From: Bradyrhizobium sp. AZCC 2176
Lineage (GTDB): Bacteria; Pseudomonadota; Alphaproteobacteria; Rhizobiales; Xanthobacteraceae
Assembly (NCBI RefSeq): GCF_036924645.1
Contig: NZ_JAZHRX010000001.1
Coordinates: forward strand, 6,599,501 to 6,663,500
DNA: 64,000 nucleotides
Reading direction: 5' to 3'
The translations under genes and the position numbers were made by a program. The notes below the pieces were generated by a model. It was not told the origin of the DNA. It searched no databases and saw nothing but the letters and a program-made list of their open reading frames with translations. Below, in pieces: positions 6,963 to 36,175 of this stretch (positions within the stretch are counted from its first letter, which is position 1; every line of letters starts with the position of its first letter).

Positions 6963-8591
6963 CTAGTCGACCGGACCCTGTTCGTTGACGTGGCCGGAGA
7001 GAGCGGCCGCGCCGACGCCGGTGCCCTTCTGCCGCGGCGGAAAGTCCCTGAGGCTTGTGACGTACCGGTTCACATGCGGCGCCAGGATCGGCAGGATCCA
7101 GCTCTTCTCCTTCATCCAGCCGAAATGACCGGGCGCTTCCGGCGTGCGCTCGAACGGGTCGAGCTTGATATCGATGACGAGCCCGCCCGGCACCTTCTCG
7201 GCAGACTTCAGCCATTCGTTCTTGAGCGCGATGTGGACCTTCCACTGATCGACACGCGCCGCGTTTAATTCCGTCTCGCCGTAAAAGAAGAATTCATGAC
7301 GCTTGGTCGGCCCCTTGCCCGTCAGCATGTCAAGCTGGTTGTAGCCGTCGAGGTGCACCTTGAAAGTCTCGGAACCGATCTTCTTGCCCTTCAGAAGCTC
7401 GTCCTTGACATTGTCTGCGCCAGCCGCCGCCATCAGCGTCGGCAGCCAGTCTTCGGACGCCATCAATTCACCTGTCCACTGCCCGGACATGATTTTTCCC
7501 GGCCAGCGCACAAGCATCGGTACCCGGAAGCCGCCGTCCCACGTCGTGCCCTTCTCGCCCCGGAATGCCGCCGTGCCGGCGTTCGGCCAATGCGCGAGAT
7601 TGACCCCGTTGTCGGAGGTGAACAGGATGATGGTGTTGTCTCGAATTCCGAGACGGTCCACTTCGTCGAGGACTTGCCCGACGAGCCAGTCGAGGTGCAG
7701 CAGAGCGTCGGCATAAGCGCTGTGACCGCTCTTTCCTTCCCACTCTTTGCTGACATGAATCTGCTGATGCATCCGCGAAGGATTGAACCACAGGAAGAAC
7801 GGTGTCTTCGCCGACACGTTGGCCTTCACGAATGCGAGCGATCGATCCAGCACGACGTTGTCGAACGTCTTCTGGCGCTCGGCGCCGAGCGGGCCGTCAT
7901 CCGTGATGACCTGCCGGCCGACGCGGCCCCAGCGTGGATCGACGGTCGCGTCGTCCTTGTCGCTGGCCTTTGCGTAAATGACATTGCGAGGCCGGCCAGC
8001 AAAGTTCGGGTCTGTCGGGAATTCCGTTTGTTCGGGCATTTCCATCATATTGAGGTGATAGAGGAAGCCATAGAACTCATCGAAACCGTGCACCGTCGGC
8101 AGGAACTCGTTCCGGTCACCGACGTGGCTTTTGCCGAACTGGGCTGTTGCATAGCCTTCAGTCTTCAGCAGTTGCGCGAGCGTGACGTCTTCTTTCTGCA
8201 GGCCAACCGGTGAACCGGGCTGTCCAACCGACGTCAATCCGGTCCGGATCGGGTATTGGCCGGTGATGAATGCCGCCCGACCGGCCGTGCAGCTTGGTTG
8301 CGCGTAGTAGTCGCTGACCATCAAGCCTTCTCTGGCGATGCGATCGATATTCTTCGTCGTGACCGAGCCAAGCCCGCGATGGTAGGCCGAGATGTCAAAT
8401 GGAGGGGCATCGTCGGCCATAATCACGACGATGTTCGGCTTGGCTTGCTGTGCAACTGCGATCGGGCTGAAAGCAAGCGCGACCGAGAAAATGCCGGCCA
8501 AGGCAGCTCCCCGCATCCAACAAAGGCTTGACCCGGTTCGCTTGAACTCAGCGATTCGTGTCAGAGATTGGTTGACATCGTCGTCCGTCAT
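6963..8591 (-). CDS. Periplasmic arylsulfatase, CTAGR-type active site
   Basis: This 542-residue sulfatase of the alkaline-phosphatase superfamily hydrolyses sulfate esters. The metal-binding start PNIVVIMADD is at 52-61, and the active-site motif C101-T-A-G-R105 follows SYYAQPS-like context (SDYYAQPSCTAGRAAFITG). The Cys is the residue turned into formylglycine, but the usual Pro of CxPxR is replaced by Ala. Other family motifs are FGKSHVGD, LFTSDNGVNLAHWP and FRGEKGTTWDGGFRVPM. A hydrophobic segment at about 25-48 ending AVAQ suggests export. The start at 8591 has GGAGA six bases upstream and is preferred over the earlier ATGs at 8627 and 8603. It lies 58 bases after the hlyD-like gene and shares the locus with the activating enzyme. 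Confidence 0.92.
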   Translation of the reverse strand: MTDDDVNQSLTRIAEFKRTGSSLCWMRGAALAGIFSVALAFSPIAVAQQAKPNIVVIMADDAPPFDISAYHRGLGSVTTKNIDRIAREGLMVSDYYAQPSCTAGRAAFITGQYPIRTGLTSVGQPGSPVGLQKEDVTLAQLLKTEGYATAQFGKSHVGDRNEFLPTVHGFDEFYGFLYHLNMMEMPEQTEFPTDPNFAGRPRNVIYAKASDKDDATVDPRWGRVGRQVITDDGPLGAERQKTFDNVVLDRSLAFVKANVSAKTPFFLWFNPSRMHQQIHVSKEWEGKSGHSAYADALLHLDWLVGQVLDEVDRLGIRDNTIILFTSDNGVNLAHWPNAGTAAFRGEKGTTWDGGFRVPMLVRWPGKIMSGQWTGELMASEDWLPTLMAAAGADNVKDELLKGKKIGSETFKVHLDGYNQLDMLTGKGPTKRHEFFFYGETELNAARVDQWKVHIALKNEWLKSAEKVPGGLVIDIKLDPFERTPEAPGHFGWMKEKSWILPILAPHVNRYVTSLRDFPPRQKGTGVGAAALSGHVNEQGPVD

Positions 8592-8649
8592 CGGTCTCTC
8601 CATTTCAGGTCGTTTGATGCACTGCATTCGTAGGCATCGTTCAAGTTCT

Positions 8650-9789
8650 CTATGCGCTGAAGAACAGATAATTGGTCCAGCTCGTGATGCGCATCACCGC
8701 CATGCGAATGATGCCGGCAAGCTGGACGTTGCCGGTGTAAACGGCGGCGTTGCCCTGTGTGCCGGCCGGCAAGCGAAGCTTCTCAGCGTCATCGAGCTTG
8801 ATGCGGACGGCAAAGCGCGCGGTGCCGGGAGCGTTGGCGCCGGGAAACAAGCCGCTGGCGCTCAACTGCCCTTCGCTGGCGAGATCGATCGTCGTGAGCA
8901 CTTTTCCGGAAAACACCTGACCCGGATACATGGGGAATACGACTTCCGCGTAATCGCCGGGATTGATGCGCAGATAAGGCCCCTGCATGAACGAGGCGAC
9001 GACCACTCCGGCATTGTGTTCGTCGCGGTCGCAGACAAAAGGCAGCACCGACGCCGCCGCACTGACGACGGCGCCCGGGACCAATTGAATGTTTGTCGCA
9101 TAGCCGTCGCACGGCGCCCGGACGATCGATTCCTCGACGTTGTACTTCGCCTGCGCGAGTTGCTGCCGGGCCTGGGCGACCGCGGTATTCTCGCTGCCGA
9201 TATTGGACTGGTAGGCCAGCCGCGCGCGGTCTTCCGCGGCCTGCGCGCCCGCGACTGCCTGCTTGGCCGACTCAAGGTTACGTTCGGACCGGTCGAGGGT
9301 GGCCTGCGCGATGACCTTCTTCTCGAACAGCTCGTTCTGGCGCCCGAAATCGGCCAGCGCGAGGTTGAGTTGAACATTGGCCTTTTCGACCCCGGCGGCG
9401 GCCTGGTCGACGGATGATTTCAGTTGCGGCACGCTCTGCTCGGCCGCCGCCAATGCGGCTTCCAGGCGCTTGCCGTCGAACTGAAACTGCTGCGGATCGA
9501 TGGTGAAGACCACATCGCCCTTTTTCATGGGCGCGTTCGGCTGCGCCACCACCTCCTGAACGCGGCCCGGTGCAGTGATATGCGGCACCACCTGCACGAC
9601 GCGCTGAAACACCCGCGCGTCTGCCGACGACGGATGGAAGTTGTTCATCGAGACGATGATGTAGAAGGCAAAAATCGGCCCTACCGCCGCCAGGACAAGC
9701 GCGAGCGGAAGGTCCAAGCGGATCAGCCGCAGCTTGTCGAACAGAAGCCAGATGATGGCCGCATAGGTAATGAAGATGGCGGCCATCAT
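8650..9789 (-). CDS. HlyD-family membrane fusion protein (YiaV/YibH-like)
   Basis: The 379-residue protein has two N-terminal hydrophobic segments (about 3-17 and 26-46), then the membrane-fusion layout: a lipoyl half near 70-100 (ITAPGRVQEVVAQPNAPMKKGD), a long coiled-coil hairpin (about 105-215) with Ala/Gln/Glu heptads, the second lipoyl half (IVRAPCDGYATNI) and a beta-barrel region. These proteins bridge inner and outer membranes in export systems. Its start overlaps the stop of the small upstream gene by ATGA, and the DUF3302 gene lies just before, matching the E. coli yiaW-yiaV pair. No ABC or MFS pump and no TolC partner lies nearby. Its C-terminus is repeated in the remnant at 6877-6951. 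Confidence 0.87.
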   Translation of the reverse strand: MMAAIFITYAAIIWLLFDKLRLIRLDLPLALVLAAVGPIFAFYIIVSMNNFHPSSADARVFQRVVQVVPHITAPGRVQEVVAQPNAPMKKGDVVFTIDPQQFQFDGKRLEAALAAAEQSVPQLKSSVDQAAAGVEKANVQLNLALADFGRQNELFEKKVIAQATLDRSERNLESAKQAVAGAQAAEDRARLAYQSNIGSENTAVAQARQQLAQAKYNVEESIVRAPCDGYATNIQLVPGAVVSAAASVLPFVCDRDEHNAGVVVASFMQGPYLRINPGDYAEVVFPMYPGQVFSGKVLTTIDLASEGQLSASGLFPGANAPGTARFAVRIKLDDAEKLRLPAGTQGNAAVYTGNVQLAGIIRMAVMRITSWTNYLFFSA

Positions 9790-26043: not shown

Positions 26044-26538
26044 TCATCGTTGATCGAACTTGGTCAGCCGCCACCTCACCAGGTCGTCGGCGCCTGGACC
26101 GGCCTGAGGCCGAACATCCCTCATGCGGACCACCTCGCCTGACTTCTCATCCACGAGCGCCAGCTTCACCTGGCGTCCGCTGTTCCTGTTGATGAATTTG
26201 AGAGGGGGGCCGGCGTCCCCGGTAATTCCCCATTTGTCCCCGACCTGGGCAAGCGCCTGAACGACGAGGATGACGTCCCTGCCCTTTCGGGTCAGGAGGT
26301 ACTCGTAACGATCGGGACCCGACTGATACTGCCGCCGCTCGATCAGTTCATTTTCTTCAAGATGCTTGAGGCGGTCGGACAAGGTGGCATGGGTAACATC
26401 AGTCGACTTCCTCAAATCCTCGTATTTGCTCAAACCCAGCGACAGGTCGCGCAAGATCAGGACTGCCCAGCGATCGCCGACGGCATCCAGCACCCCGGCG
26501 ATCGAACAAGCCATTCCCTCAAAACTCTTCGAGCGCAT
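26044..26538 (-). CDS. HxlR-family winged-helix regulator
   Basis: The 164-residue protein from the ATG at 26538 (GGAGG nine bases upstream) has the HxlR pattern: CSIAGVLDAVGDRWAVLILR near 10-29, then a winged helix with HATLSDRLKHLEENELIERR and a wing in PDRYEYLLTRKGRD. The family responds to aldehydes, thiols or aromatic ligands. A frame continues to 26697 but reads through the palindromes that I take as operators. It is divergent from the enoyl-reductase-like gene. A copy of its promoter and first 19 codons lies at 28823-29004. Confidence 0.9.
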   Translation of the reverse strand: MRSKSFEGMACSIAGVLDAVGDRWAVLILRDLSLGLSKYEDLRKSTDVTHATLSDRLKHLEENELIERRQYQSGPDRYEYLLTRKGRDVILVVQALAQVGDKWGITGDAGPPLKFINRNSGRQVKLALVDEKSGEVVRMRDVRPQAGPGADDLVRWRLTKFDQR

Positions 26539-26557
26539 CTGCGTGGACCTCCGAATA

Positions 26558-26574
26558 ACTCTTATTGCCAGAGT
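26558..26574. promoter_or_regulatory. Palindromic operator 1, ACTCT-N7-AGAGT
   Basis: ACTCT and AGAGT arms surround a 7-base spacer, 20 bases before the hxlR start. A second site of the same form lies 87 bases away at 26645-26661, about eight helical turns. Position and pairing suggest autoregulation by the HxlR protein. Confidence 0.65.
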
Positions 26575-26644
26575 AAACTCGCCTGGCCCGCTATCCAAGG
26601 CCAGACCGGGAATTTTCATGCAAGAATTCACTTGCCTTCCAGTC

Positions 26645-26661
26645 ACTCTTATTATTAGAGT
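26645..26661. promoter_or_regulatory. Palindromic operator 2, ACTCT-N7-AGAGT
   Basis: ACTCTTATTATTAGAGT keeps 7 of 8 base pairs per arm in register except one position. It is identical to the site at 28987-29003 in the duplicated segment, while operator 1 has decayed there. The site lies between the divergent hxlR and enoyl-reductase-like genes and could control both. Confidence 0.68.
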
Positions 26662-26788
26662 TAAAGAACACAAGCCCAACCATTTCCGACAGTTCATTAT
26701 ACGAACTTAGCATGGTTTTGTGTCGAGCCGTCAGCAAACCCATGAGATTAGTTGGCGGAATGAGCCATACGGCTCTCGCGGAGGGACA

Positions 26789-27763
26789 ATGAAGTTTTTG
26801 CAAATGTCTAAGTTTGGCAATCCCACAGAGGTGGTTGAAGTTGTCGAAAGCGATCCACCCCCACCGCCGGCAGCAAATGAAGCCACGGTCGCAGTCGAAT
26901 ACTCAGCGATCGGTCCCGCTGAACTTCTGATGATCCGTGGCAGGTATGGGATCAGGCCACAGCCGCCGGCGCCGCTCGGGAACGAAGCTATTGGACGCGT
27001 TATCGCCGTTGGAGCCTTGGTTAAAAATGTAAAGACTGGCGATCGTGTCGCCATTCCGACCGGACTTCCAGTGTGGAGGCAGGCCATAACGGTCGCGGCC
27101 GCCGATCTCATCGTCTTGTCTGAGCAAGCCGATCCGCAACAGCTGTCAATGCTTCGGATCAATCCGCTGACAGCGGCATTGCTCTTGACCGAGTATGTCG
27201 AACTCGGCAAGGACGACTGGGTCATCCAGAACGCCGGCAATTCCGGTGTGGGACGCAGCGTCATTGCGTTTGCACAGGAGTTCGGACTTCGCTCGGTAAG
27301 CCTCGTGCGCAGACCCGAACTCGTGGATGAGCTGAAGTCAGCCGGAGCTGACGTCGTCCTTGTCGATGGACCCGACGTTGTGAAGCAGGTCGCAGCGGCG
27401 ACCGGCAATGCTAAAATCAAGCTGGGCATCGACGGCGTGGGTGGCGACTCCTCGCACTCGGTTGCGTCTTGCCTAACGTCGAACGCCAAGATGGTCGCCT
27501 ATGGCGGCGTCAGCGGAAAGCCCGCGGCCATGAGTCCCCTGAACATTATTTTCAAGCAGGTGACCCTGGAAGGGTTTTGGCTGGGATATCCGCGCTTTCG
27601 AGATGCACACGAAAAGCTTGCGGCTCACACGCGGACAGCCGAGCGACTGATCGCCGAAGGCAAACTGTACGTTCCGGTCGCCGGCGTTTATTCGCTCGAG
27701 CAGGCAACTCAGGCCATTGCGCATGCGCAAAAAGGCGGGAAAGTCCTTTTGAAACCCAACTAA
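26789..27763 (+). CDS. MDR-family dehydrogenase, 2-enoyl-thioester-reductase-like
   Basis: The ATG at 26789 has GAGGGA five bases upstream; 324 residues. It is a medium-chain dehydrogenase/reductase: an N-terminal GroES-like part (VEYSAIGPAELLMIRGRYG) and a nucleotide-binding domain starting NPLTAALLLTEYVELGKDDWV, with QNAGNSGVGRSVI. This last pattern is close to mitochondrial enoyl-ACP/CoA reductase (MECR/Etr1) rather than zinc alcohol dehydrogenases, and the catalytic zinc ligands are absent. The likely reaction is NADPH-dependent reduction of a 2-enoyl thioester; a quinone reductase is the alternative. It is divergent from hxlR across the two operators. Confidence 0.82.
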   Translation: MKFLQMSKFGNPTEVVEVVESDPPPPPAANEATVAVEYSAIGPAELLMIRGRYGIRPQPPAPLGNEAIGRVIAVGALVKNVKTGDRVAIPTGLPVWRQAITVAAADLIVLSEQADPQQLSMLRINPLTAALLLTEYVELGKDDWVIQNAGNSGVGRSVIAFAQEFGLRSVSLVRRPELVDELKSAGADVVLVDGPDVVKQVAAATGNAKIKLGIDGVGGDSSHSVASCLTSNAKMVAYGGVSGKPAAMSPLNIIFKQVTLEGFWLGYPRFRDAHEKLAAHTRTAERLIAEGKLYVPVAGVYSLEQATQAIAHAQKGGKVLLKPN

Positions 27764-27778
27764 TGGATAATCAACGGT

Positions 27779-27805
27779 CAGGCGCCCTGAACTCTAGGGC
27801 GCCTG
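27779..27805 (+). terminator. Strong hairpin after the enoyl-reductase-like gene
   Basis: Ten perfect base pairs (CAGGCGCCCT with AGGGCGCCTG) close a 7-base loop, starting 16 bases after the stop codon. No T-run follows, so it may stop transcription only partly or protect the mRNA 3' end. Confidence 0.7.
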
Positions 27806-27824
27806 AAACCGCAGCTAGTCCGAT

Positions 27825-28442
27825 ATGAAAAGCGATGGTCCTAATTCTAATAGGGCGAAGGCGCAAACGAAAGAACAGCGAACTTGCTATACGCACTTTA
27901 CCGAAGAAGGCGTGCAAAGCATCTACGAACCGGATCGTGTTCGGCTAGAGACAATCGACGGGAAGCTTATTGAGGAGCGTGTACATCCAAGAAAGGCGTT
28001 TGAAGGACACACCCTTCAGACTACGTGGGATAGGCAGCATCTGGCCTACTTTTCCGGGTATGCAATTTGGAATTATCTAAATACTCCATTTATGTTTGTC
28101 ACTGAGAGTGCCAAAGCGGAAGAAATAGATCCGGTGTCCGACCAAGGCACGGTACGCCGGCGGCTGAAGATCACTTTTCCCGAGAAGGTTGGAACTCACT
28201 GTCCGGACCAGATATTCCACGTCGATGAAAACGGGCTCATCGCTCGTTTGGATTATACCACACTCGTGGCAGGTGGCGCTCCAGCCGCGCACTACATGTC
28301 CGAGTACAAGAACATTCAAGGGATTATGATGCCAACCAAACGGCGCGCGTTCAGGAGAAACCTGGACGGAACTCTAAATGCTGAATCTGTCCTCGTCGGT
28401 ATTGATATCTCTGCAATAACCTTGACTTACGAAAAGCATTGA
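27825..28442 (+). CDS. Unknown-family protein, N-terminally shortened paralogue
   Basis: The 205-residue product aligns with the protein at 29034-29750 from QRTCYTHFT (against QRVYYQPFT) to the end. It shares [27 protein letters not shown] and the C-terminal GIDISAI pattern, but its first 65 or so residues are replaced by about 18 unrelated ones. No ribosome binding site precedes the ATG, and it follows directly after the hairpin. It is therefore probably a truncated, poorly expressed copy. I do not recognise the family. The beta-rich pattern hints at a lipocalin- or LolA-like ligand-binding fold, but that is a guess. Its codon use is more AT-rich than its paralogue, consistent with relaxed selection. 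Confidence 0.6.
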   Translation: MKSDGPNSNRAKAQTKEQRTCYTHFTEEGVQSIYEPDRVRLETIDGKLIEERVHPRKAFEGHTLQTTWDRQHLAYFSGYAIWNYLNTPFMFVTESAKAEEIDPVSDQGTVRRRLKITFPEKVGTHCPDQIFHVDENGLIARLDYTTLVAGGAPAAHYMSEYKNIQGIMMPTKRRAFRRNLDGTLNAESVLVGIDISAITLTYEKH

Positions 28443-28822
28443 GACGACAGGAAGCACGCAAACAAATGGGTATCTCCGTTGTTATGCAAGGGCAGCCTGC
28501 CTCAGCGAGGCAAGAGCCGAGCCTGATGACCGGGACCGTCAGTGCCGGCGCATAGAGACCGCCACCTCAGCGGCACAGCGGATCAGCACGGCACGCTGAT
28601 CGATGTCGGCTTTGTAGATGATCGTGACGTCGACATTGCTGAAGCTGCGGCATGCCGAGGGCCTTTCGAAAGAGGTTCTTTCCAACAGCGATACATTTTC
28701 CGGCGAAAGTATTATTTTTCCCTTCGGCTCTGGGGACACTAGCGGTCTGTCAGCAGCTATGAATCATGGCGTCGTGTGTCCCCGGCGATAGCAGAAGGAC
28801 AGTAGAGTTCATTGCAGACGGT
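28443..28822. other. Intergenic debris before the duplicated promoter
   Basis: I see no supported gene. A 66-codon minus-strand frame (28539-28739, with VTIIYKADID and LIRCAAEVAVS) and its plus-strand shadow have no ribosome binding site and no family I know; they may be a fragment of a lost gene. The region ends where the duplicated 182-bp segment begins. Confidence 0.4.
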
Positions 28823-29004
28823 CGGCATCGAGCACCCCGGCGATCGAACAAGCCATTCCCTCAAAACTCTTCGAGCGCATCTGCGTGGACCTCCGAATAA
28901 CTCCTATTACCAGCGTAAACTCGCCTGGCCCGCTATCCAATGGCCCGACCAGGAATTTCATGCAAGAATTCACTTGCCTTCCAGTCACTCTTATTATTAG
29001 AGTT
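28823..29004. repeat. 182-bp direct repeat, second copy (captured hxlR promoter)
   Basis: This copy of 26481-26662 contains the first 19 codons of hxlR on the minus strand, which then run into unrelated DNA. The first operator is altered (ACTCC and AGCGT arms), but the second, at 28987-29003, is unchanged. It ends 29 bases before the start of the unknown-family gene, so it now acts as that gene's upstream control region. Confidence 0.92.
28987..29003. promoter_or_regulatory. Conserved HxlR-type operator in front of the molybdenum-hydroxylase operon
   Basis: This is an exact copy of the 26645-26661 palindrome. It ends 30 bases before the ATG at 29034, a typical position for a repressor site. 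Perfect retention of this site beside decay of its partner suggests it is still used. Confidence 0.68.
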
Positions 29005-29033
29005 GGTCAATGCACAACGGGAGGGCAATGGAT

Positions 29034-29750
29034 ATGAGCGAACTGCGCGACCTTGTCCTCAACGCTCACGGTGTCACACGCTGGAAATCGGCCAGGACGA
29101 TCGAGGGCAATATGTCGATCACCGGCCTGCTATGGGCAAGAAAAGGCTGGCCCGATGCGCTGAAGCAGGTCCGCGTTACGGCCGATACCGAAAGCCAGCG
29201 GGTTTACTATCAGCCGTTTACGAATCCGGACTGGCGCAGCGTCTATGGGCCCGAGGCGGTCGCAATCGAGACATCGGACGGTAAGCCAATCAAGAGCCGG
29301 GTAAATCCGCGCGCTTCCTTTCAAGGGCACGCAGTTGAGACGGCCTGGGACGATCTGCATCTCGCCTATTTCAGCGGCTACGCGATCTGGAATTATCTCA
29401 ACACCCCGTTTCTCTTCGTGCTGCCGGGCTTCAAGACGGAAGAGATCGAGCCATGGGACGAACACGGCGAGAGCCGACGCCGGCTGAAGGTGACATTTCC
29501 GGATTCGGTCGCGACGCATTGTCCCGAACAGGTGTTTCATATCGACGGTGAAGGCCTGATCTCGAGAGTTGACTATAGCGCAATCGTAACCGGCGGAATC
29601 CCGACCGCGCATTGCACTTCCCAATACCGGGATTTTGATGGCGTCAGGATCGCGACCAGGCGGCGCGCCTATCGTCGAAGAGCCGATGGCACCGCGATCA
29701 CCGAAGGCGTCGCGGTCGCGATCGATATTGCCGACATCCGGCTCTCATAA
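29034..29750 (+). CDS. Unknown-family protein, full-length paralogue
   Basis: From the ATG at 29034 (GGGAGG eight bases upstream; other in-frame ATGs at 29010 and 29028 fit less well) the protein has 238 residues. It has no signal peptide or membrane segment. Distinct stretches are [20 protein letters not shown] near 28-47, [18 protein letters not shown] near 110-127 and [20 protein letters not shown] near 158-177. I cannot name the family. It is the longer relative of the product at 27825-28442. It precedes the molybdenum hydroxylase genes by 40 bases, so it is likely made with them and may handle their substrate. Confidence 0.8.
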
Positions 29751-29790: not shown

Positions 29791-30282
29791 ATGCCCGAAC
29801 CCGACGATCGTCATGTGGTAACCTTGGAGATCAACGGCACGCGCAAGACCGTCGCAGTGGAAGCGCGAAAATTGCTGGTCCACCTGATCAGGGAGGACCT
29901 TGGCCTCACTGGAACGCATGTCGGCTGCGATACTTCGCAGTGCGGCGCCTGCACCGTGGAGATCGACGGACTGGCGATCAAGTCCTGCACTGTGCTGGCC
30001 GTGATGGCTGACGGTGCGTCGATCACGACGATCGAGGGCCTGACCGACACAGGGGCCGAACTCAGCCCGGTTCAGGCTGCGTTCCATGAACATCACGCGC
30101 TGCAATGCGGCTTCTGCACGCCGGGCATGGTGATGAGCGTGCGTCAGCTGTTGAAGGATCAGCCCAATCCGAGCGAGCACGACATCCGCCACGGCCTTGC
30201 CGGCAACATCTGCCGCTGCACCGGCTATCACAACATCGTCCGCGCCATCGAAAGCCTGGCATCGAAAGGCGACCAGCCATGA
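29791..30282 (+). CDS. Molybdenum hydroxylase, [2Fe-2S] small subunit (CoxS-like)
   Basis: This 163-residue protein has a plant-type [2Fe-2S] site (C46, C51, C54, C66 in [12 protein letters not shown]) and a second cluster in a four-helix domain (C106, C109, C141, C143 in CGFCTPGM and NICRCTGY). It passes electrons from the molybdenum centre to FAD in the cytoplasmic complex. The start at 29791 has GGAG six bases upstream. Its stop overlaps the large-subunit start by four bases. The order small-large-medium and the subunit sizes define the CO-dehydrogenase/xanthine-dehydrogenase family. Confidence 0.94.
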
Positions 30283-32651
30283 ACGATACAACTGCGATCC
30301 GCCTTATCGGCCAGCCGCTCAGACGACAGGAGGATTTCAAATTTCTCGCCGGCAAGGGCCGGTACGTCGATGATGTCAGGTTGCCGGGCATGCTGCATAT
30401 GGCAGTACTGCGATCGCCGCACGCCCACGCCAAGATCCGAAACGTCGATCTGTCGGCAGCCAAAGTCGCACCGGGTGTTCGCCTTGTATTGTCCGGCAAG
30501 GCGCTCGCCGGCAAGATCGGTCCGATCGTGCCGAACTGGGTCATTCCCGGCAGCAAGGTACCGTTCCGTCCGGTTGTCGCGACCGATTGCGTTCGCTTTG
30601 TCGGCGAGTGCGTGGCGCTGGTCGTCGCGGAAACGCTGGCTGAAGCCTATGACGCCGTCGGCAGGATCGAAGTCGAGTACGACGTGCTGCCCGCCGTGAT
30701 CGATGAGGAAGTCGCGATCCGGGAGGGCGCACCGCAGCTCCATGACAACGTTCCGGGCAATATCACCACGATCTACAAAGTACGCGGCGGCGACTACCAG
30801 AACGCCGCCCGCGAGGCCGATCATGTCATCGGCCTGCGCGTCGTCAACAACCGCCTGATCCCCACCTGCATGGAAACGCGCGCGATCGTTGCCTCGCCGG
30901 AACCGGACGGCACCTTGACGGTTTATATCGGCAGTCAGGTTCCCCACATGCACCGACGCTGGATCGCCGAGACGGTCGGTATTCCCGAGCATCAATTGCG
31001 GGTGGTCGCACCTGATATCGGAGGCGGCTTTGGCGCCAAGATGCATCTGTATCCGGAAGACCTGCTCTGCCCCTATCTCGCGCGCGAACTTGACGCACCG
31101 GTCAAGTGGTGGGAGAGCCGCTCCGAGAGCCATCAATCGACCAGCCATGGTCGCGCCCATACGGAAAATATCGAGGTAGCGTTCAGGAACGACGGCAAGA
31201 TCCTCGGCCTGAAGGTCGACACCCTCGGCAACGTCGGCGCCTACCTGTCGAACATGGCGAGTGGCGGTCCGACTGTGAATACCATCAACTTTGGAACCGG
31301 CACTTACAAGATAGACAACTATGAGGCTATTTCCCGCGTCGTCGTGACCAATACCGTGCCGGTTGATGCCTATCGCGGCTATGGGCGGCCCGAAGGCGCT
31401 TATATTGCCGAGCGCGCGATTGATGCGGTGGCACGCCACCTCAAGCTCGACCAGGTCGAAGTGCGGCGGAAGAATTTCGTTCAATCGGCGGAATTTCCCT
31501 ATCGGCCCTACGGCAGCACGGGCGTCATGTACGACAGCGGCAATTACCAGGGACTGCTCGACAAGGCGCTCGCGGCTTTCGACTATGAAGGCCGCCGCAG
31601 CGAATGCCAAGCCTTGCGCGGAAGCGGCATCTATCGCGGCATTGGCGTTGCCGCCTATACGCATATGTGCGGGATGGCACCATCACGCCGGTTGGCTGTG
31701 AGCGGATTCGACCGGGGCGGCTGGGAAAGCGCGCGGGTCAGCATCGACTCCAGCGGACGAGCCACGATCTATTCGGGCTCGATGAGCCAGGGACAAGGCC
31801 ATATCACGTCGTTGTCGCAGATCGCTGCCGACGTGTTGCAGATTCCGATTGAAGACATCGACATCGTACAGGGCGACACGCGCCAGGTACAGGCCGGCCA
31901 CGGCACCTTCAATTCCCGTTCGATGGCGGTCGGTGGATCCAGCGTGCACGTGTCCTCCCAACGCATTGTCGCAAAGGCGAAGAAGATCGCGGCGGGCATG
32001 CTGGAAGTGGACGAGAAGGACGTTTCCTATTCGGCCGGCGCGTTCAGCGTGCCCGGTACCGATATCGCGCCGCTAACCTTCCCGAAGGTGGCCCGCATGG
32101 CCTATGTCGGGCATAAACTGCCGGATGGCGTCGCGCCGGGCCTTGATGAGACGGTGTACTACGACCCGACCGGCATGGGTTCGCCGTCGGGCGTCCACCT
32201 CGCTTATGTCGAGGTCGATCCGGAAACCGGGATCGTCGATATCCTCGACTATGTCGCGGTTGACGACGTCGGCACGCTGATCAATCCCCGTCTCGCGGCC
32301 GGCCAGATCCATGGCGGCGTCGTGCAGGGCATCGCACAAGCGCTCTATGAAGAGGTCAGCTACGATCCTGACAATGGGCAGCTGCTGACCGGTTCGCTGC
32401 TCGATTATGCCGTTCCGCGCGCCGAGCATGTGCCGAACATCCGATCGCTATTCCAGCAAACTCCCTCGCCGACCAATCCGATCGGCGTCAAGGGCATCGG
32501 CGAGAGCGGTTCGATTGCCGCCCCGCCTTGTATGGTTCATGCGGTGCTTGATGCTTTGTCACCATTCGGTATCAAACATCTGGACATGCCGCTGACGCCG
32601 CCACGGGTCTGGGCGGCGGTGCAACAAGCACGCATGGGAGCGGCCCGATGA
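30279..32651 (+). CDS. Molybdenum hydroxylase, molybdopterin-binding large subunit
   Basis: The 790-residue catalytic subunit holds the molybdenum cytosine-dinucleotide cofactor. The active-site loop is A364-Y-R-G-Y-G-R370-P-E, the form-II/xanthine-dehydrogenase type, not the AYRCSFR loop with catalytic Cys of true form-I CO dehydrogenase. The base-acting Glu is E742 in GIGESG. Other cofactor motifs are IGGGFGAKM near 246-254 and [10 protein letters not shown] oxidation is therefore unlikely; hydroxylation of an aldehyde, heteroaromatic or aromatic-CoA is more likely. ATGA overlaps link it with the genes before and after. No maturation genes (coxDEF type) are present. Confidence 0.92.
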
Positions 32652-33502
32652 TCCCCGCAGCCTTCGATTATGTCCGCGCGTCATCGCTCGCCCAGGCGAT
32701 CGATCTGTTGCGCGACGATCCCGACGGAACAAAGCTCCTGGCTGGCGGCCATACCCTCCTGCCGGCGCTGAAGCTGCGGTTGGCGTCCCCCGAACTGCTG
32801 GTCGATATCAGCGGCATCGCCGAGCTCAAGGGAATCGAGATCAGCGAAACCGGCATCAGGATCGGCGCACTGGCCACCCATGCCGAACTGTTTGCTTCCG
32901 AGCCCCTGTACAGGGAATTGCCGGTCTTTCGCAGGGCAGCCAGCCTGATTGCCGATCCCCAGGTGCGTAACCGCGGCACGATCGGCGGCTCGCTCGCGAA
33001 CGCCGATCCCGCGGCTGACTGGCCGGCGGTAGCGGTGGCGCTGCAGGCAGAGATCGAGATCGTGGGCCCGAATGGCCTCCGAAGGGTGGCGGCGCGGGAC
33101 TTCTTTATCGATATCTTTTCGACTGTGCTGGAACCGGACGAAATTCTCGCAAGCGTCCATATCCCTCGGCCGAGGACTGACATGCACTTCATCTATCGAA
33201 AGATCCGGCATCCCGCGAGCGGCTTTGCCGTCGTGGGAATCGCGGTCGGCGTGCGGTTGCAAGAGGGGGCGGTTGACGAGATTTCCATCGGCGTCACCGG
33301 TGCAGCGAACCACGCCTTCGCCGGCCAACGCGCTTCCGATTTCCTGATCGGCAAGACGCTTTCGCAGGACAACATCGAACAGACGGCACAATTGCTAAGT
33401 GAGACCACCGAGTGCCTCTCCGACCGCTACGCTTCGGCGGAATACCGCGCGAATCTGATCCGGATCGAGACCAGGCGCGCGTTATTTGCGCTTGCGTCGT
33501 GA
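32648..33502 (+). CDS. Molybdenum hydroxylase, FAD-binding medium subunit (CoxM-like)
   Basis: The 284-residue protein has the two FAD pyrophosphate motifs of the family, AGGHTLLPALKLRL near 32-45 and TIGGSLANADPAADWP near 114-129, and the C-terminal domain ending with conserved Arg-rich helices. It receives electrons from the iron-sulfur subunit and passes them to an acceptor. It starts in the ATGA overlap with the large subunit. Its 3' end overlaps the converging HxlR gene by 21 bases. Confidence 0.93.
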   Translation: MIPAAFDYVRASSLAQAIDLLRDDPDGTKLLAGGHTLLPALKLRLASPELLVDISGIAELKGIEISETGIRIGALATHAELFASEPLYRELPVFRRAASLIADPQVRNRGTIGGSLANADPAADWPAVAVALQAEIEIVGPNGLRRVAARDFFIDIFSTVLEPDEILASVHIPRPRTDMHFIYRKIRHPASGFAVVGIAVGVRLQEGAVDEISIGVTGAANHAFAGQRASDFLIGKTLSQDNIEQTAQLLSETTECLSDRYASAEYRANLIRIETRRALFALAS

Positions 33503-34030
33503 AACGGGAGCGTTCGAGTCGACAACCCCGCGATCGGCAGCATTGCCGCCAAATCGCTTACGATTGAACGGAACAGCACCTGCGCCGGCAACGATCTCGA
33601 CGTCCTCAAGCCGCAACGGCTTGCCGCCGCTCGTCCGCAACGCCGGATATTCGATCGGTCGTCCGGCGGCGCGTTCGCGGAACACGACCTGCGGCCCTGC
33701 GGGCTCCGCCAGCCAGTCGTCACCCCATTTCTTAAGCGCGAGATAGGCCGGAAAGAAATCGCGTCCTTTCTCGGTCAGAACGTACTCATATCGGCCGGCG
33801 TGTTCGGGTAGCGGCACCCGTGTCATGACGCCGGCATCAACGAATTTCTTCAGCCGGGTGCTCAAGATATTGGAAGCGATCCCGATATAGTATTCGAACT
33901 CATCGAAGCGTTTCACGCCGTAATAGGCCTCGCGCAGGATCAGGATGGACCAGCGGTCGCCGACAACCTCCATGGCGCGCGCCATGGAACATTCCTTGTT
34001 TGCAAGACGGCTTCGCTTCACACTGGACAT
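33482..34030 (-). CDS. Second HxlR-family regulator
   Basis: The 182-residue protein has CSMARAMEVVGDRWSILILR near 15-34, a winged helix with SNILSTRLKKFVDAGVMTR and a wing in AGRYEYVLTEKGRD, followed by an extended basic tail. It is related to, but clearly distinct from, the HxlR at 26044-26538. It converges on the molybdenum hydroxylase operon and overlaps its last 21 bases. Upstream, CTCAA and TTGAG arms near 34050-34071 may form an operator. It may control the following CoA-transferase and hydratase genes or the hydroxylase. Confidence 0.88.
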   Translation of the reverse strand: MSSVKRSRLANKECSMARAMEVVGDRWSILILREAYYGVKRFDEFEYYIGIASNILSTRLKKFVDAGVMTRVPLPEHAGRYEYVLTEKGRDFFPAYLALKKWGDDWLAEPAGPQVVFRERAAGRPIEYPALRTSGGKPLRLEDVEIVAGAGAVPFNRKRFGGNAADRGVVDSNAPVSRRKRK

Positions 34031-34110
34031 AGCTCTTTCAACCCCGAACTCAACTCATACCATATTGAGCGGGATTCGCGTATGTCCAGTGCGCCCTTCG
34101 GCGTTTCTGA

Positions 34111-35376
34111 TCAGGCCGCCTGCCCCGGCTCGGCTTCCGGCTTGGCGACGATGTCTGGCTCTAGCGCACGCCGATGCGAAACGAGCGCGCCCGCTTCGCT
34201 TAAGCGTTTCAATTCCGCCTCGCTGAGGCCGAGTTCGCTGAAGACCGCGAAGTTATGCTCGCCCTGAAAGGCAGGTGTGCCAATTGGTGCCAGCTCCTCT
34301 GCCGAAAAATGCCACGGCCGGCCCGGCAACCGATATTCGCCGCCGCTGCGGTCAGGGACGCGTTGGACAGCGCCCCAGTAATCGCTCCATTCCGATGCCG
34401 TGAGCTCCTTGATAGAACGGATCTCGCCCATGGCGATTTTGGCCTCGTCGAACTGGGCGTCGAGGGTCGCCATATCCGGAAAGGTCAGGATCCACGACTG
34501 GATGATCTGATGCAGCACGCCGAAATTCAAGCGGCGCGCGGCAGCGCTGGAGAACCGCGGATCATCCATCAGATCGACCCGGCGCATGGCGCGCAGCCAC
34601 GACGGAAAGGTCCGGCTGCCAATAATGCTGGTCGCGACCGTGAAATTTTCGCCTTGCGGTCCTGTAAAGAAGGAACAATCAGTGGCGCCGAGCACCGCCG
34701 GCTCCGCCCCGATGTCATCATCGGAAAGATCGACGTGCGCGCGTTCGTTGACCGCAAGCAACGTCGCCGCCATTGCGACGTCGATATACTGGCCCCGACC
34801 GGTCCTCTGACGGCTATTGAGAGCCGCAAGTATCGCGATCACGGCCTGCAATCCAGCGTAGACGTCGGCATGCGACAGGCTGTCGGTACGCGGCTCCGTC
34901 AGAGCGCTGCCATAGTGGCGGACGCTGTTTTCGGTAAAGCCAGCCTCGGCCTGCACGGTTGGCGCATAAGCCATCCTGCTCCGCCACGGACCACCCTGCC
35001 CATAACCTGTGATCGACGCGTATATCAGCCGTGGATTGCGTTTCGACAGCGTTGCGTAATCCAGCCCGAAGAAACCCAGTGTGCCTGCCCGGAAGTTTTC
35101 GACCAGGATATCGGCGGTGTCGCAGAGTTCAAGCGCCAACTCGTAAGCGCCCGGGATGTTGAGATTGATACTGACGTTGCGTTTGCCGGCATTTTGCTGA
35201 GCGTAATAGCCTGACATCCCGTCGGTCGATGGAAAAGCAAAGCGAGAAACGTCGGGGCTTGGTGGTTCGATCTTGATCACCTCAGCGCCGAGGTCCTGCA
35301 AGGTCCGGGCACACAGAGGACCAGCCAACACACGGGAAAAATCGACGACACGGATTCCACTCAAGGGGCCACTCAT
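34111..35376 (-). CDS. CaiB/BaiF-family CoA-transferase
   Basis: The start at 35376 follows the hydratase stop by one base, so the two are coupled. The 421-residue protein has type III CoA-transferase marks: RVVDFSRVLAGPLCARTLQDL near 8-28, DLGAEVIKIEPP, NAGKRNVSIN, NFRAGTLGFFGLDY and SITGYGQGGPW. The catalytic Asp that forms the acyl anhydride should lie near residue 170 in the DSLSHADVYAG region. These enzymes move CoA from one carboxylic acid to another without ATP. Together with the hydratase it should process an activated acid. Confidence 0.92.
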   Translation of the reverse strand: MSGPLSGIRVVDFSRVLAGPLCARTLQDLGAEVIKIEPPSPDVSRFAFPSTDGMSGYYAQQNAGKRNVSINLNIPGAYELALELCDTADILVENFRAGTLGFFGLDYATLSKRNPRLIYASITGYGQGGPWRSRMAYAPTVQAEAGFTENSVRHYGSALTEPRTDSLSHADVYAGLQAVIAILAALNSRQRTGRGQYIDVAMAATLLAVNERAHVDLSDDDIGAEPAVLGATDCSFFTGPQGENFTVATSIIGSRTFPSWLRAMRRVDLMDDPRFSSAAARRLNFGVLHQIIQSWILTFPDMATLDAQFDEAKIAMGEIRSIKELTASEWSDYWGAVQRVPDRSGGEYRLPGRPWHFSAEELAPIGTPAFQGEHNFAVFSELGLSEAELKRLSEAGALVSHRRALEPDIVAKPEAEPGQAA

Positions 35377-35377
35377 G

Positions 35378-36175
35378 TCAGCGCCCCGCAAACTTTGCGA
35401 GACCCGGGCCGTTCTTGCGGAATGATGCAAGACCGGTCTTGAGGTCTTCCGACGCCCAGATCGGCGCCTGTACGCGTGACATCGCCTCGTCCGCAGCCAC
35501 CACGCCCTGATTGACGGCGATATGCGCGAGTTCCTTGGTTGCGGCATGCGCCACCGTTGGGCCTTGCGCGAACTCCTCCGCGATGGCCATGGTCGCCGTC
35601 TCCAACGATTCCTCCGGGACAGTGAGATTGATTAATCCCCACTTCTCCAGCGTTGGCGCATCGTAGCGCCGCGCCAGCATCGACATCTCCTTGGCGCGCT
35701 GCGCGCCGATACGTTGCACCTGCCGCTGGATTCCTCCCAGCAAGGGATGCAGCCCAAGCGTCGCCTCGACTGAGCCGATCTTCGCCGAAGAGGCTGCGAT
35801 GATGTAATCGCACGATAGCGCAAGCTCGAGACCGCCACCCAGGCAAACGCCGTGAACGCTGGCGATTAACGGGATTGGCAGAAGCTCCATGAAGCGCAAG
35901 AATTCGACGCCGTTCAGCCGCCGATTTTCACCGCCCTGATCTGCGCTGCCTGCCTCCACCCGCTTATCGAAGATATCCAGATCTGCGCCGGCGGAGAAAT
36001 GCCGCAGTCCGCTACGGATGACGATAGCGCGGCTGCCTGCCTTTTGCGCTGCCTCCACCTGCTCCACGATCGCGTTGAGAAGCTTGGGACCGAGCAGGTT
36101 GTACGGCCGATAAACCATTGTCAAAACGGAAATATTGCCGCGCTGTTCGCGCGTCACCAACGCATCCTCGGACAA
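35378..36175 (-). CDS. Enoyl-CoA hydratase/isomerase (crotonase) family protein
   Basis: The start is TTG at 36175, supported by AGGAGG about six bases upstream. The 265 residues show oxyanion-hole segments (RHFSAGADLDIF near 58-69 and HGVCLGGGLELALSCDYIIAA near 109-129). Both catalytic glutamate positions are filled, in GGGLELAL and SVEATLGLHPLLGG. It likely adds water to, or isomerises, an enoyl-CoA. It is the first gene of a two-gene unit with the CoA-transferase. Confidence 0.9.
   Translation of the reverse strand: MSEDALVTREQRGNISVLTMVYRPYNLLGPKLLNAIVEQVEAAQKAGSRAIVIRSGLRHFSAGADLDIFDKRVEAGSADQGGENRRLNGVEFLRFMELLPIPLIASVHGVCLGGGLELALSCDYIIAASSAKIGSVEATLGLHPLLGGIQRQVQRIGAQRAKEMSMLARRYDAPTLEKWGLINLTVPEESLETATMAIAEEFAQGPTVAHAATKELAHIAVNQGVVAADEAMSRVQAPIWASEDLKTGLASFRKNGPGLAKFAGR

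What the first reader, a model, noticed from the sequence alone, without database searches (positions are those of the whole stretch)
26481..29004. HxlR promoter, operators and first codons duplicated in front of an unknown gene and a molybdenum hydroxylase operon
182 bp at 26481-26662 recur at 28823-29004 in the same orientation. The copy carries a useless 19-codon stub of hxlR, yet ends 29 bases before a gene with a good ribosome binding site, with one ACTCT-N7-AGAGT palindrome kept exactly and the other decayed. This looks like promoter capture: an HxlR-controlled switch copied onto a new operon, joining an enoyl-reductase-like enzyme, an unknown protein family and a molybdenum hydroxylase into one regulon.
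Basis: partly seen in the sequence, partly recalled or inferred. Interest (0 to 1): 0.78.

Follow-up and report, generated by a model that had tools for sequence, protein, structure and literature searches.

The report
Cassette inserted inside a duplicated switch
In some Bradyrhizobium strains a small two-gene cassette sits between a regulator gene and the enzyme operon it normally faces, and the shared control region is now found on both sides of it, so both old neighbours keep a copy of the switch; the enzyme operon is the original owner of the switch, not a newcomer that borrowed it.

Summary
The repeat is real: 26481-26662 and 28823-29004, same strand, 96% by BLAST, only two copies in the 7.15 Mb genome. 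Of 33 single-copy places examined, 27 have hxlR divergent from the molybdenum hydroxylase operon; the other six carry a distant hxlR paralogue without that operon; none has the reductase gene next to hxlR. So 28823-29004 is the operon's own ancestral promoter. The newcomer lies between the repeats: an MDR/quinone-reductase-like gene plus a second member of the unknown family. In three genomes it stands elsewhere beside its own HxlR-type regulator; it arrived with its own operator (AGTTC-N7-GAACT), without that regulator. This matches 'insertion with long target duplication'. Six of 265 same-genus genomes have it, with the left junction at the same place. In one (G054) insert, repeats and adjoining gene ends form a block of high identity in a diverged flank, as if spread by homologous recombination. 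The operator next to the Mo operon is invariant in 6 of 6 filled genomes, while the spare hxlR-side operator decayed in 4 of 6. ACTCT-N7-AGAGT occurs three times in the genome, all here. Regulation itself is inferred, not shown.

The parts
26044..26538 (-). hxlR, HxlR-family regulator (164 aa from the conserved start ATG at 26538; the ORF as listed runs to 26697)
   Evidence: Pfam HxlR 73.9 bits, cut-off 20.8, for the longer ORF; start and GGAGG
26481..26662 (.). left copy of the 182-bp repeat: hxlR codons 1-19, 5' UTR, two operators; faces hxlR on one side and the inserted genes on the other
26558..26574 (.). operator O1 left (hxlR-proximal), ACTCT-N7-AGAGT, perfect
26645..26661 (.). operator O2 left, ACTCTTATTATTAGAGT, encloses the -10-like TATTAT
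26663..28822 (.). insert absent from single-copy relatives (about 28 bp of unknown origin, operator, reductase-like gene, unknown-family gene A, 380-bp tail)
   Evidence: comparison with G237 and G023 empty sites; six genomes
26691..26707 (.). operator-like palindrome brought by the insert, AGTTCATTATACGAACT, shared with the stand-alone module
26789..27763 (+). reductase-like gene 'ER': zinc-type MDR / quinone-oxidoreductase-like, 324 aa
   Evidence: Pfam ADH_N, ADH_zinc_N; NCBIfam PIG3 family best hit but below its cut-off
27825..28442 (+). unknown-family gene A ('DUFA'), start and first ~50 codons lost by an internal 160-bp deletion in this genome
28556..28623 (-). relic resembling the 3' end of a feruloyl-CoA-synthetase-like (AMP-binding) gene inside the 380-bp tail
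   Evidence: gene name from recall, no family scan run
28823..29004 (.). right copy of the repeat = the promoter region of the Mo operon at its ancestral place, with a 19-codon hxlR stub
28900..28916 (.). operator O1 right, decayed (ACTCCTATTACCAGCGT)
28987..29003 (.). operator O2 right, unchanged, with TTCACT-17-TATTAT promoter-like match 28969-28997
29034..29750 (+). unknown-family gene B ('DUFB'), 238 aa, LolA/LolB-like fold predicted
29791..30282 (+). Mo hydroxylase small [2Fe-2S] subunit (MoS)
30279..32651 (+). Mo hydroxylase large molybdopterin subunit (MoL)
32648..33502 (+). Mo hydroxylase FAD subunit (MoM)
33482..34030 (-). second HxlR-family gene (hxlR2), convergent at the end of the Mo operon

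Best explanation
Ancestral state: hxlR and the [DUFB]-MoS-MoL-MoM operon are divergent and share one control region with two ACTCT-N7-AGAGT operators, O1 at hxlR and O2 at the operon. A cassette (reductase-like ER + DUFA, with its own AGTTC-N7-GAACT operator but without its own hxlR') was inserted, and the 182 bp from hxlR codon 19 to the end of O2 ended up on both sides of it. Thus hxlR keeps its promoter on the left and the Mo operon keeps its own on the right; the left O2 promoter now also points at ER. Inferred function: HxlR covers the -10 at O2 and releases the operon on a signal; the Cys at residue 11 suggests an electrophile or redox signal. The right-hand O1, which has no hxlR to control, decays; O2 is kept. 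ER may carry two inputs, HxlR through the left O2 and an HxlR3-type regulator through the AGTTC site. Shown by sequence: history, junctions, conservation, decay, patchy spread. Inferred: binding, repression, signal and which promoter drives ER.
For: 27 of 33 single-copy places have hxlR (64% or more identical) divergent from the Mo operon, 0 of 33 have ER beside hxlR. Perfect ACTCT-N7-AGAGT in the shared region in 21 of these 27 (18 of 21, 3 of 6). Empty sites G237 and G023 match the left flank of the left copy and the right flank of the right copy, with few differences. Six filled genomes share the position of the left junction; the right junction is the same in four, altered in G012 and G005. 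Stand-alone hxlR'-ER in G160, G151 and G269 (gene A follows in G160 and G269); G269 also has the single-copy hxlR-DUFB-Mo locus. O2 has 0 of 102 changed cells in six right copies versus O1 12 of 102 and spacer 47 of 420. ACTCT-N7-AGAGT occurs 3 times in the genome, all here; backward control 1. AGTTC-N7-GAACT lies 155-164 bp before hxlR3 in 15 of 15 loci of 13 genomes. hxlR' at 89% or more only in G160, G151 and G269 of 13 genomes searched. PMC7835342 (passages): Cys11 is conserved and senses electrophiles or oxidants in this family; our HxlR has Cys at residue 11 (by eye).
Against: The right O1 is intact in G005 and G306, so decay is not universal; the four decayed copies share some changes, so they are not four independent losses. 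The left O1 also has an arm change in G306. The inserted AGTTC operator is damaged in G054 and G005. The O2 invariance test (hypergeometric p 0.003) ignores shared descent. The promoter match is not above shuffles (2 found, mean 1.4). Four of the six paralogue loci without a Mo operon also have a perfect ACTCT-N7-AGAGT upstream, so the site marks this hxlR group rather than the Mo operon. ER of the stand-alone G269 locus groups with G054 and G273, so exchange after insertion has blurred the history. G023 and G237 could be later precise losses through the repeats; the deeper single-copy loci (G019, G288, G052 and others) are harder to explain so. The event that made the duplication was not observed.
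Confidence: 0.78

Rival explanations
1. Promoter capture: the HxlR switch was copied from hxlR-ER onto a Mo operon that had other control.
For: The right copy has a useless 19-codon stub and one decayed operator, as a copy would.
Against: 27 of 33 single-copy places have hxlR facing the Mo operon and none has it beside ER; ER elsewhere faces a different regulator in three of three stand-alone loci.
Confidence: 0.04
2. Integration of a circle: a circular molecule carrying ER-DUFA and one 182-bp unit entered a single-copy locus by homologous recombination, giving flanking repeats. Circles could be released by the reverse reaction from a filled strain.
For: Flanking direct repeats, and presence/absence scattered over the rpoB tree, fit repeated entry and exit.
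Against: The very first circle would have needed the hxlR stub joined to the cassette; none of the three stand-alone loci has it. In the plasmid collection four records match, each over 4-5% of the query only, and none matches the tail.
Confidence: 0.2
3. Tandem duplication of promoter plus unknown gene inside the locus (DUFA being the old DUFB copy), with ER inserted later.
For: DUFA and DUFB are homologues lying behind the two copies.
Against: The genes are 51-53% identical while the repeats in this genome are 92% ungapped and 96% by BLAST (77-95% between left and right copies in the other five, gaps counted); ER-DUFA exists as a unit with its own hxlR' in two genomes.
Confidence: 0.04
4. 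The repeats are kept by gene conversion or are neutral, and the operators have no role.
For: Left and right alleles look reassorted between copies and genomes.
Against: O2 is unchanged in all 12 copies of the six filled genomes and is exactly ACTCTTATTATTAGAGT in 14 of the 21 single-copy loci, while the spacer differs at 93 of 280 cells in the four single-copy loci compared.
Confidence: 0.1

Closest known systems
Insertion with long target duplication (Nobusato et al. 2000, Helicobacter pylori; paper not read, known from passages in PMC1643837 and PMC3031569)
   Same: Insert flanked by long direct repeats where a relative has one copy; passages speak of 'long and variable target duplications'.
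   Different: The cases in those passages concern restriction-modification genes; here the cargo is a reductase-like gene and an unknown gene, and the duplicated target is a two-operator divergent control region.
HxlR/DUF24 (MarR-like) regulator beside its divergent target operon
   Same: HxlR-family protein, divergent neighbour operon, palindromic sites between them, N-terminal Cys.
   Different: One region now exists twice, and the middle gene carries a second operator type. Bacillus subtilis HxlR responds positively to formaldehyde (PMC7835342, passages); the sign of control here is unknown.
Xanthine-oxidase-family molybdenum hydroxylase (CO/aldehyde-dehydrogenase-like three-subunit enzyme)
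   Same: All three subunits with the expected Pfam domains.
   Different: The best NCBIfam equivalogs are below their cut-offs, so the substrate is unknown.

Membership tests
Insertion with long target duplication | Relatives at the same place have one copy and no insert | tested here: met
   G237 (Grx next door and a LysR fragment match) and G023; 27 single-copy hxlR-Mo loci
Insertion with long target duplication | Long (here 182 bp) direct repeats flank the insert, both derived from the target | tested here: met
   Outer flanks match the empty site on both sides
Insertion with long target duplication | Insert comes from elsewhere | tested here: met
   Stand-alone ER(-DUFA) in G160, G151, G269
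Insertion with long target duplication | Duplication made in the same event as the insertion | not testable with these tools
   No intermediate genome seen among 265 (which scored only the two best candidates per genome)
IS element or transposon insertion | Short target duplication (a few to about 14 bp; recalled) | tested here: not met
   182 bp
IS element or transposon insertion | Transposase or integrase in the insert | tested here: inconclusive
   ER is an MDR enzyme and DUFA has no Pfam match; the other ORFs of the insert were not scanned
HxlR family regulator | HxlR winged-helix domain above the gathering score | tested here: met
   73.9 bits, cut-off 20.8
HxlR family regulator | Binds the palindromes beside it | not testable with these tools
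   Only conservation and genome-wide rarity shown
LolA/LolB-like proteins (for DUFB) | Fold | tested here: inconclusive
LolA/LolB-like proteins (for DUFB) | Exported lipoprotein carrier function | not tested
   No signal-peptide program was run

The most novel reading that the evidence does not exclude
A transposase-free cassette that moves between strains by homologous recombination at a duplicated regulatory region: the repeats are at once its homology arms and its promoter, so each arrival is wired to the local HxlR while it keeps its own HxlR3-type operator. In G054 the background is 81-91% identical to this genome, while the block from the start-proximal half of hxlR through both repeats, the insert and the first third of DUFB is 94-99%.
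Probability: 0.2. Interest if true: 0.55.

Novelty: new member of a known kind. Interest (0 to 1): 0.42.

Why it matters
It suggests how a gene cassette can land inside a divergent control region without breaking either neighbour: duplication gives each neighbour its own promoter and leaves the newcomer with one too. The six filled and 27 single-copy loci make a natural series for testing how operators are partitioned after duplication. It also points to two HxlR operator types that are probably read by different paralogues in one gene cluster, which makes specificity directly testable.

Tried and rejected
Assembly artefact: rejected, six genomes, five in one contig. Repeat as a genome-wide repetitive element: rejected, two copies. 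Plasmid source: no useful match in that collection. IS relic in the 28443-28822 tail: the only part with matches elsewhere outside the filled and stand-alone loci resembles the end of a feruloyl-CoA-synthetase-like gene. Clean single gain on the species tree: rpoB needs 5 changes for the two-copy label, and 286 of 500 shuffles are as low, so no clade is seen. A first rpoB tree used wrong reading frames and was discarded. In one search the ER query was one base out of frame; corrected and rerun on all single-copy loci. Repeat tree: poorly resolved, used only for identities. Beside hxlR2 (33990-34260 and 35500-35700) no perfect 5-N7-5 palindrome. Perfect 5-N7-5 palindromes of any kind are common (102 in the window), so only the named arm sequences count. 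Ku: three matches in the genome, so end joining is possible, not shown. Literature: none of the titles listed is about this locus (listings only, some capped: 20 of 23, 12 of 28, 12 of 98); passages read in PMC1643837, PMC3031569, PMC3120642 and PMC7835342.

Denominators: one search covers 33 single-copy places with an hxlR-like gene: 27 with the Mo operon (26 of this genus, one Afipia MAG); six without it in the fetched stretch (G128, G073, G020, second G037 place, G260, G172; hxlR 52-57%), one of which (G260) has a 27% MDR gene about 3 kb away. Weaker matches (short, E above about 1e-8) were not fetched. Left out as not informative for this count: G022 and G086 (distant unknown-family gene only), the three stand-alone ER loci and six loci fetched for the tail. 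One search scored only the two best candidates per genome, so 6 of 265 is a lower bound.
Full report
Observation. The stub, spacing and operators are as described.

What flanks what. hxlR (-), repeat, reductase-like gene ER, unknown-family gene A, 380-bp tail, repeat, unknown-family gene B, Mo hydroxylase small, large and FAD subunits, hxlR2 (-). Genes A and B are homologues, 53% identical over residues 45-237; gene A has lost its start and about 50 codons here through a 160-bp deletion, while in the other five filled genomes the match to the family runs full length. Genus: contig lengths equate G023, G012 and G069 with Bradyrhizobium sp. AUGA SZCCT0283, JYMT SZCCT0428 and RD5-C2, and G005 with a record named Bradyrhizobium ottawaense.

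Which state is old. I searched 149 relatives with the repeat region and with gene B and 265 same-genus genomes with 26400-29100, then fetched neighbourhoods. Of 33 single-copy places with an hxlR-like gene, 27 have hxlR (64-99% identical) divergent from the Mo operon; gene B is present in some (for example G023, G019, G288, G031) and absent in others (for example G052, G087, G307, G305). The other six have an hxlR of 52-57% identity and no Mo operon in the stretch, and are probably paralogues. ER stands beside hxlR in 0 of 33. Six of 265 genomes have two copies with ER and gene A between (G000, G306, G054, G273, G005, G012). In G237, with Grx next door as here, and in G023, the sequence runs from hxlR through one repeat straight into gene B, matching the left flank of our left copy and the right flank of our right copy. 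The Mo operon is therefore the original partner and the stretch 26663-28822 is the newcomer.

Where the newcomer comes from. ER stands elsewhere in G160, G151 and G269, followed by gene A in G160 and G269, in all three divergent from a 157-aa gene similar to HxlR proteins (hxlR'). Between hxlR' and ER lies AGTTC-N7-GAACT; the match between stand-alone and inserted loci starts at or up to three bases before this palindrome. hxlR' at 89% or more was found only in those three of 13 genomes. G269 has both the single-copy hxlR-B-Mo locus and the stand-alone ER locus. The tail has a short relic similar to the end of an AMP-binding, feruloyl-CoA-synthetase-like gene (name from recall).

Operators. 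ACTCT-N7-AGAGT occurs three times in the genome, all at this locus, with one hit for the backward control. Of the 27 single-copy hxlR-Mo loci 21 have at least one perfect site (18 of 21, 3 of 6), and 14 of the 21 have the exact 17-mer ACTCTTATTATTAGAGT. Four of the six paralogue loci also have a perfect site, so the site goes with this hxlR group, not with the Mo operon as such. In six right-hand copies, against G023, O2 has 0 of 102 changed cells, O1 12 of 102, spacer 47 of 420, stub 29 of 348 (20 of these in G005 alone); in left-hand copies O2 0 of 102, O1 2 of 102, spacer 27 of 420, stub 5 of 348. Right O1 is damaged in G000, G054, G273 and G012 and intact in G005 and G306; left O1 has one arm change in G306. 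O2 holds a -10-like TATTAT, 17 bases after TTCACT, in both copies; as a promoter prediction this is no better than chance (2 found, mean 1.4 in shuffles). AGTTC-N7-GAACT occurs four times in the genome, backward control 1: before ER, before hxlR3 (46% identical to hxlR' over residues 20-120, about 2 kb outside the window), before a gene that looks like a transporter substrate-binding protein (by eye), and at one place not studied. It lies 155-164 bp before hxlR3 in 15 of 15 loci of 13 genomes. So the resident HxlR3 may read the operator the cassette brought. In G054 and G005 that operator is damaged, which speaks against strong need for it there.

How it spread. rpoB does not group the six filled genomes; the Mo large-subunit tree nests unfilled G023 and G237 among filled ones and puts filled G054 with unfilled G288, G307 and the G269 locus. 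Against this genome, G054 is 81.0% in the distal half of hxlR, 94.8% in the proximal half, 97.8% and 97.3% in the repeats, 93.8-98.2% in the insert, 98.7% in the first third of gene B, then 92.0% and 91.2% in the rest of B and 87.8-91.4% in the Mo genes. That looks like a block brought in by homologous recombination through flanking shared sequence. The locus is a mosaic in other genomes too: G012 and G005 are 79-91% in gene B but 92-97% in MoS and MoL, and unfilled G023 is 81-87% in B and 96-99% in MoS and MoL. The repeats would also allow precise loss, so some single-copy close relatives could be losses.

The unknown family. Genes A and B have no Pfam or NCBIfam match at E 0.001 (at E up to 1 only scattered weak hits). 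743 homologues at E 0.001 were found; among the 120 listed, the names given are 'hypothetical' or 'uncharacterized' protein. The model (pLDDT 92) resembles LolA/LolB-type half-barrels and DUF1329 at low identity. In 7 of the 8 named loci the gene is immediately divergent from an HxlR-like gene, including Rhizobium, Neorhizobium and Peristeroidobacter; the eighth, L108, is the filled genome G012, where the stub lies there. Most of the more distant relatives show no such neighbour with these queries, but many of those loci hold only about 1.5 kb each side.

Judgement. Closest known pattern: insertion with long target duplication, known to me here only through passages in PMC1643837 and PMC3031569. 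It differs in cargo and in the target being a two-sided regulatory switch. Regulation by HxlR, the signal and the number of inputs at ER are inference.

Noticed in passing
window 27825-28442: Unknown-family gene A has lost its ribosome site, start codon and about 50 codons by a 160-bp deletion in this genome; the match runs full length in the other five filled genomes.
   Followed up: yes
L155:3342-3358 and L155:3506-4018 (genome 6665341 and following, outside the window): hxlR3 with an AGTTC-N7-GAACT palindrome 155-164 bp upstream in 15 of 15 loci of 13 genomes; a further copy at L155:7374 precedes a gene that looks like a transporter substrate-binding protein.
   Followed up: partly
window 28556-28623: Relic similar to the 3' end of a feruloyl-CoA-synthetase-like gene inside the insert's tail.
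   Followed up: partly
L109, L110, L111, L112 near 7400-8700: The LolA-fold unknown family is also immediately divergent from an HxlR-like gene in a Rhizobiales bacterium, Rhizobium, Peristeroidobacter and Neorhizobium, with no Mo operon match in those loci: a pair of unknown function.
   Followed up: partly
L119:11450-11746 and L113:8987-9684: Gene B looks damaged in two relatives: in G237 only residues 1-99 match, and in G306 the match is split in two overlapping pieces, as by a frameshift.
   Followed up: no
window 33482-34030: A second HxlR gene, convergent with the Mo operon's end and next to a CaiB-like gene, is present near the Mo operon in most of the relatives tabulated; no perfect 5-N7-5 palindrome was found beside it here.
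   Followed up: partly
L073, L074, L077, L078, L194, L195: hxlR paralogues (52-57% identical) without a Mo operon; four of these six have a perfect ACTCT-N7-AGAGT upstream.
   Followed up: no
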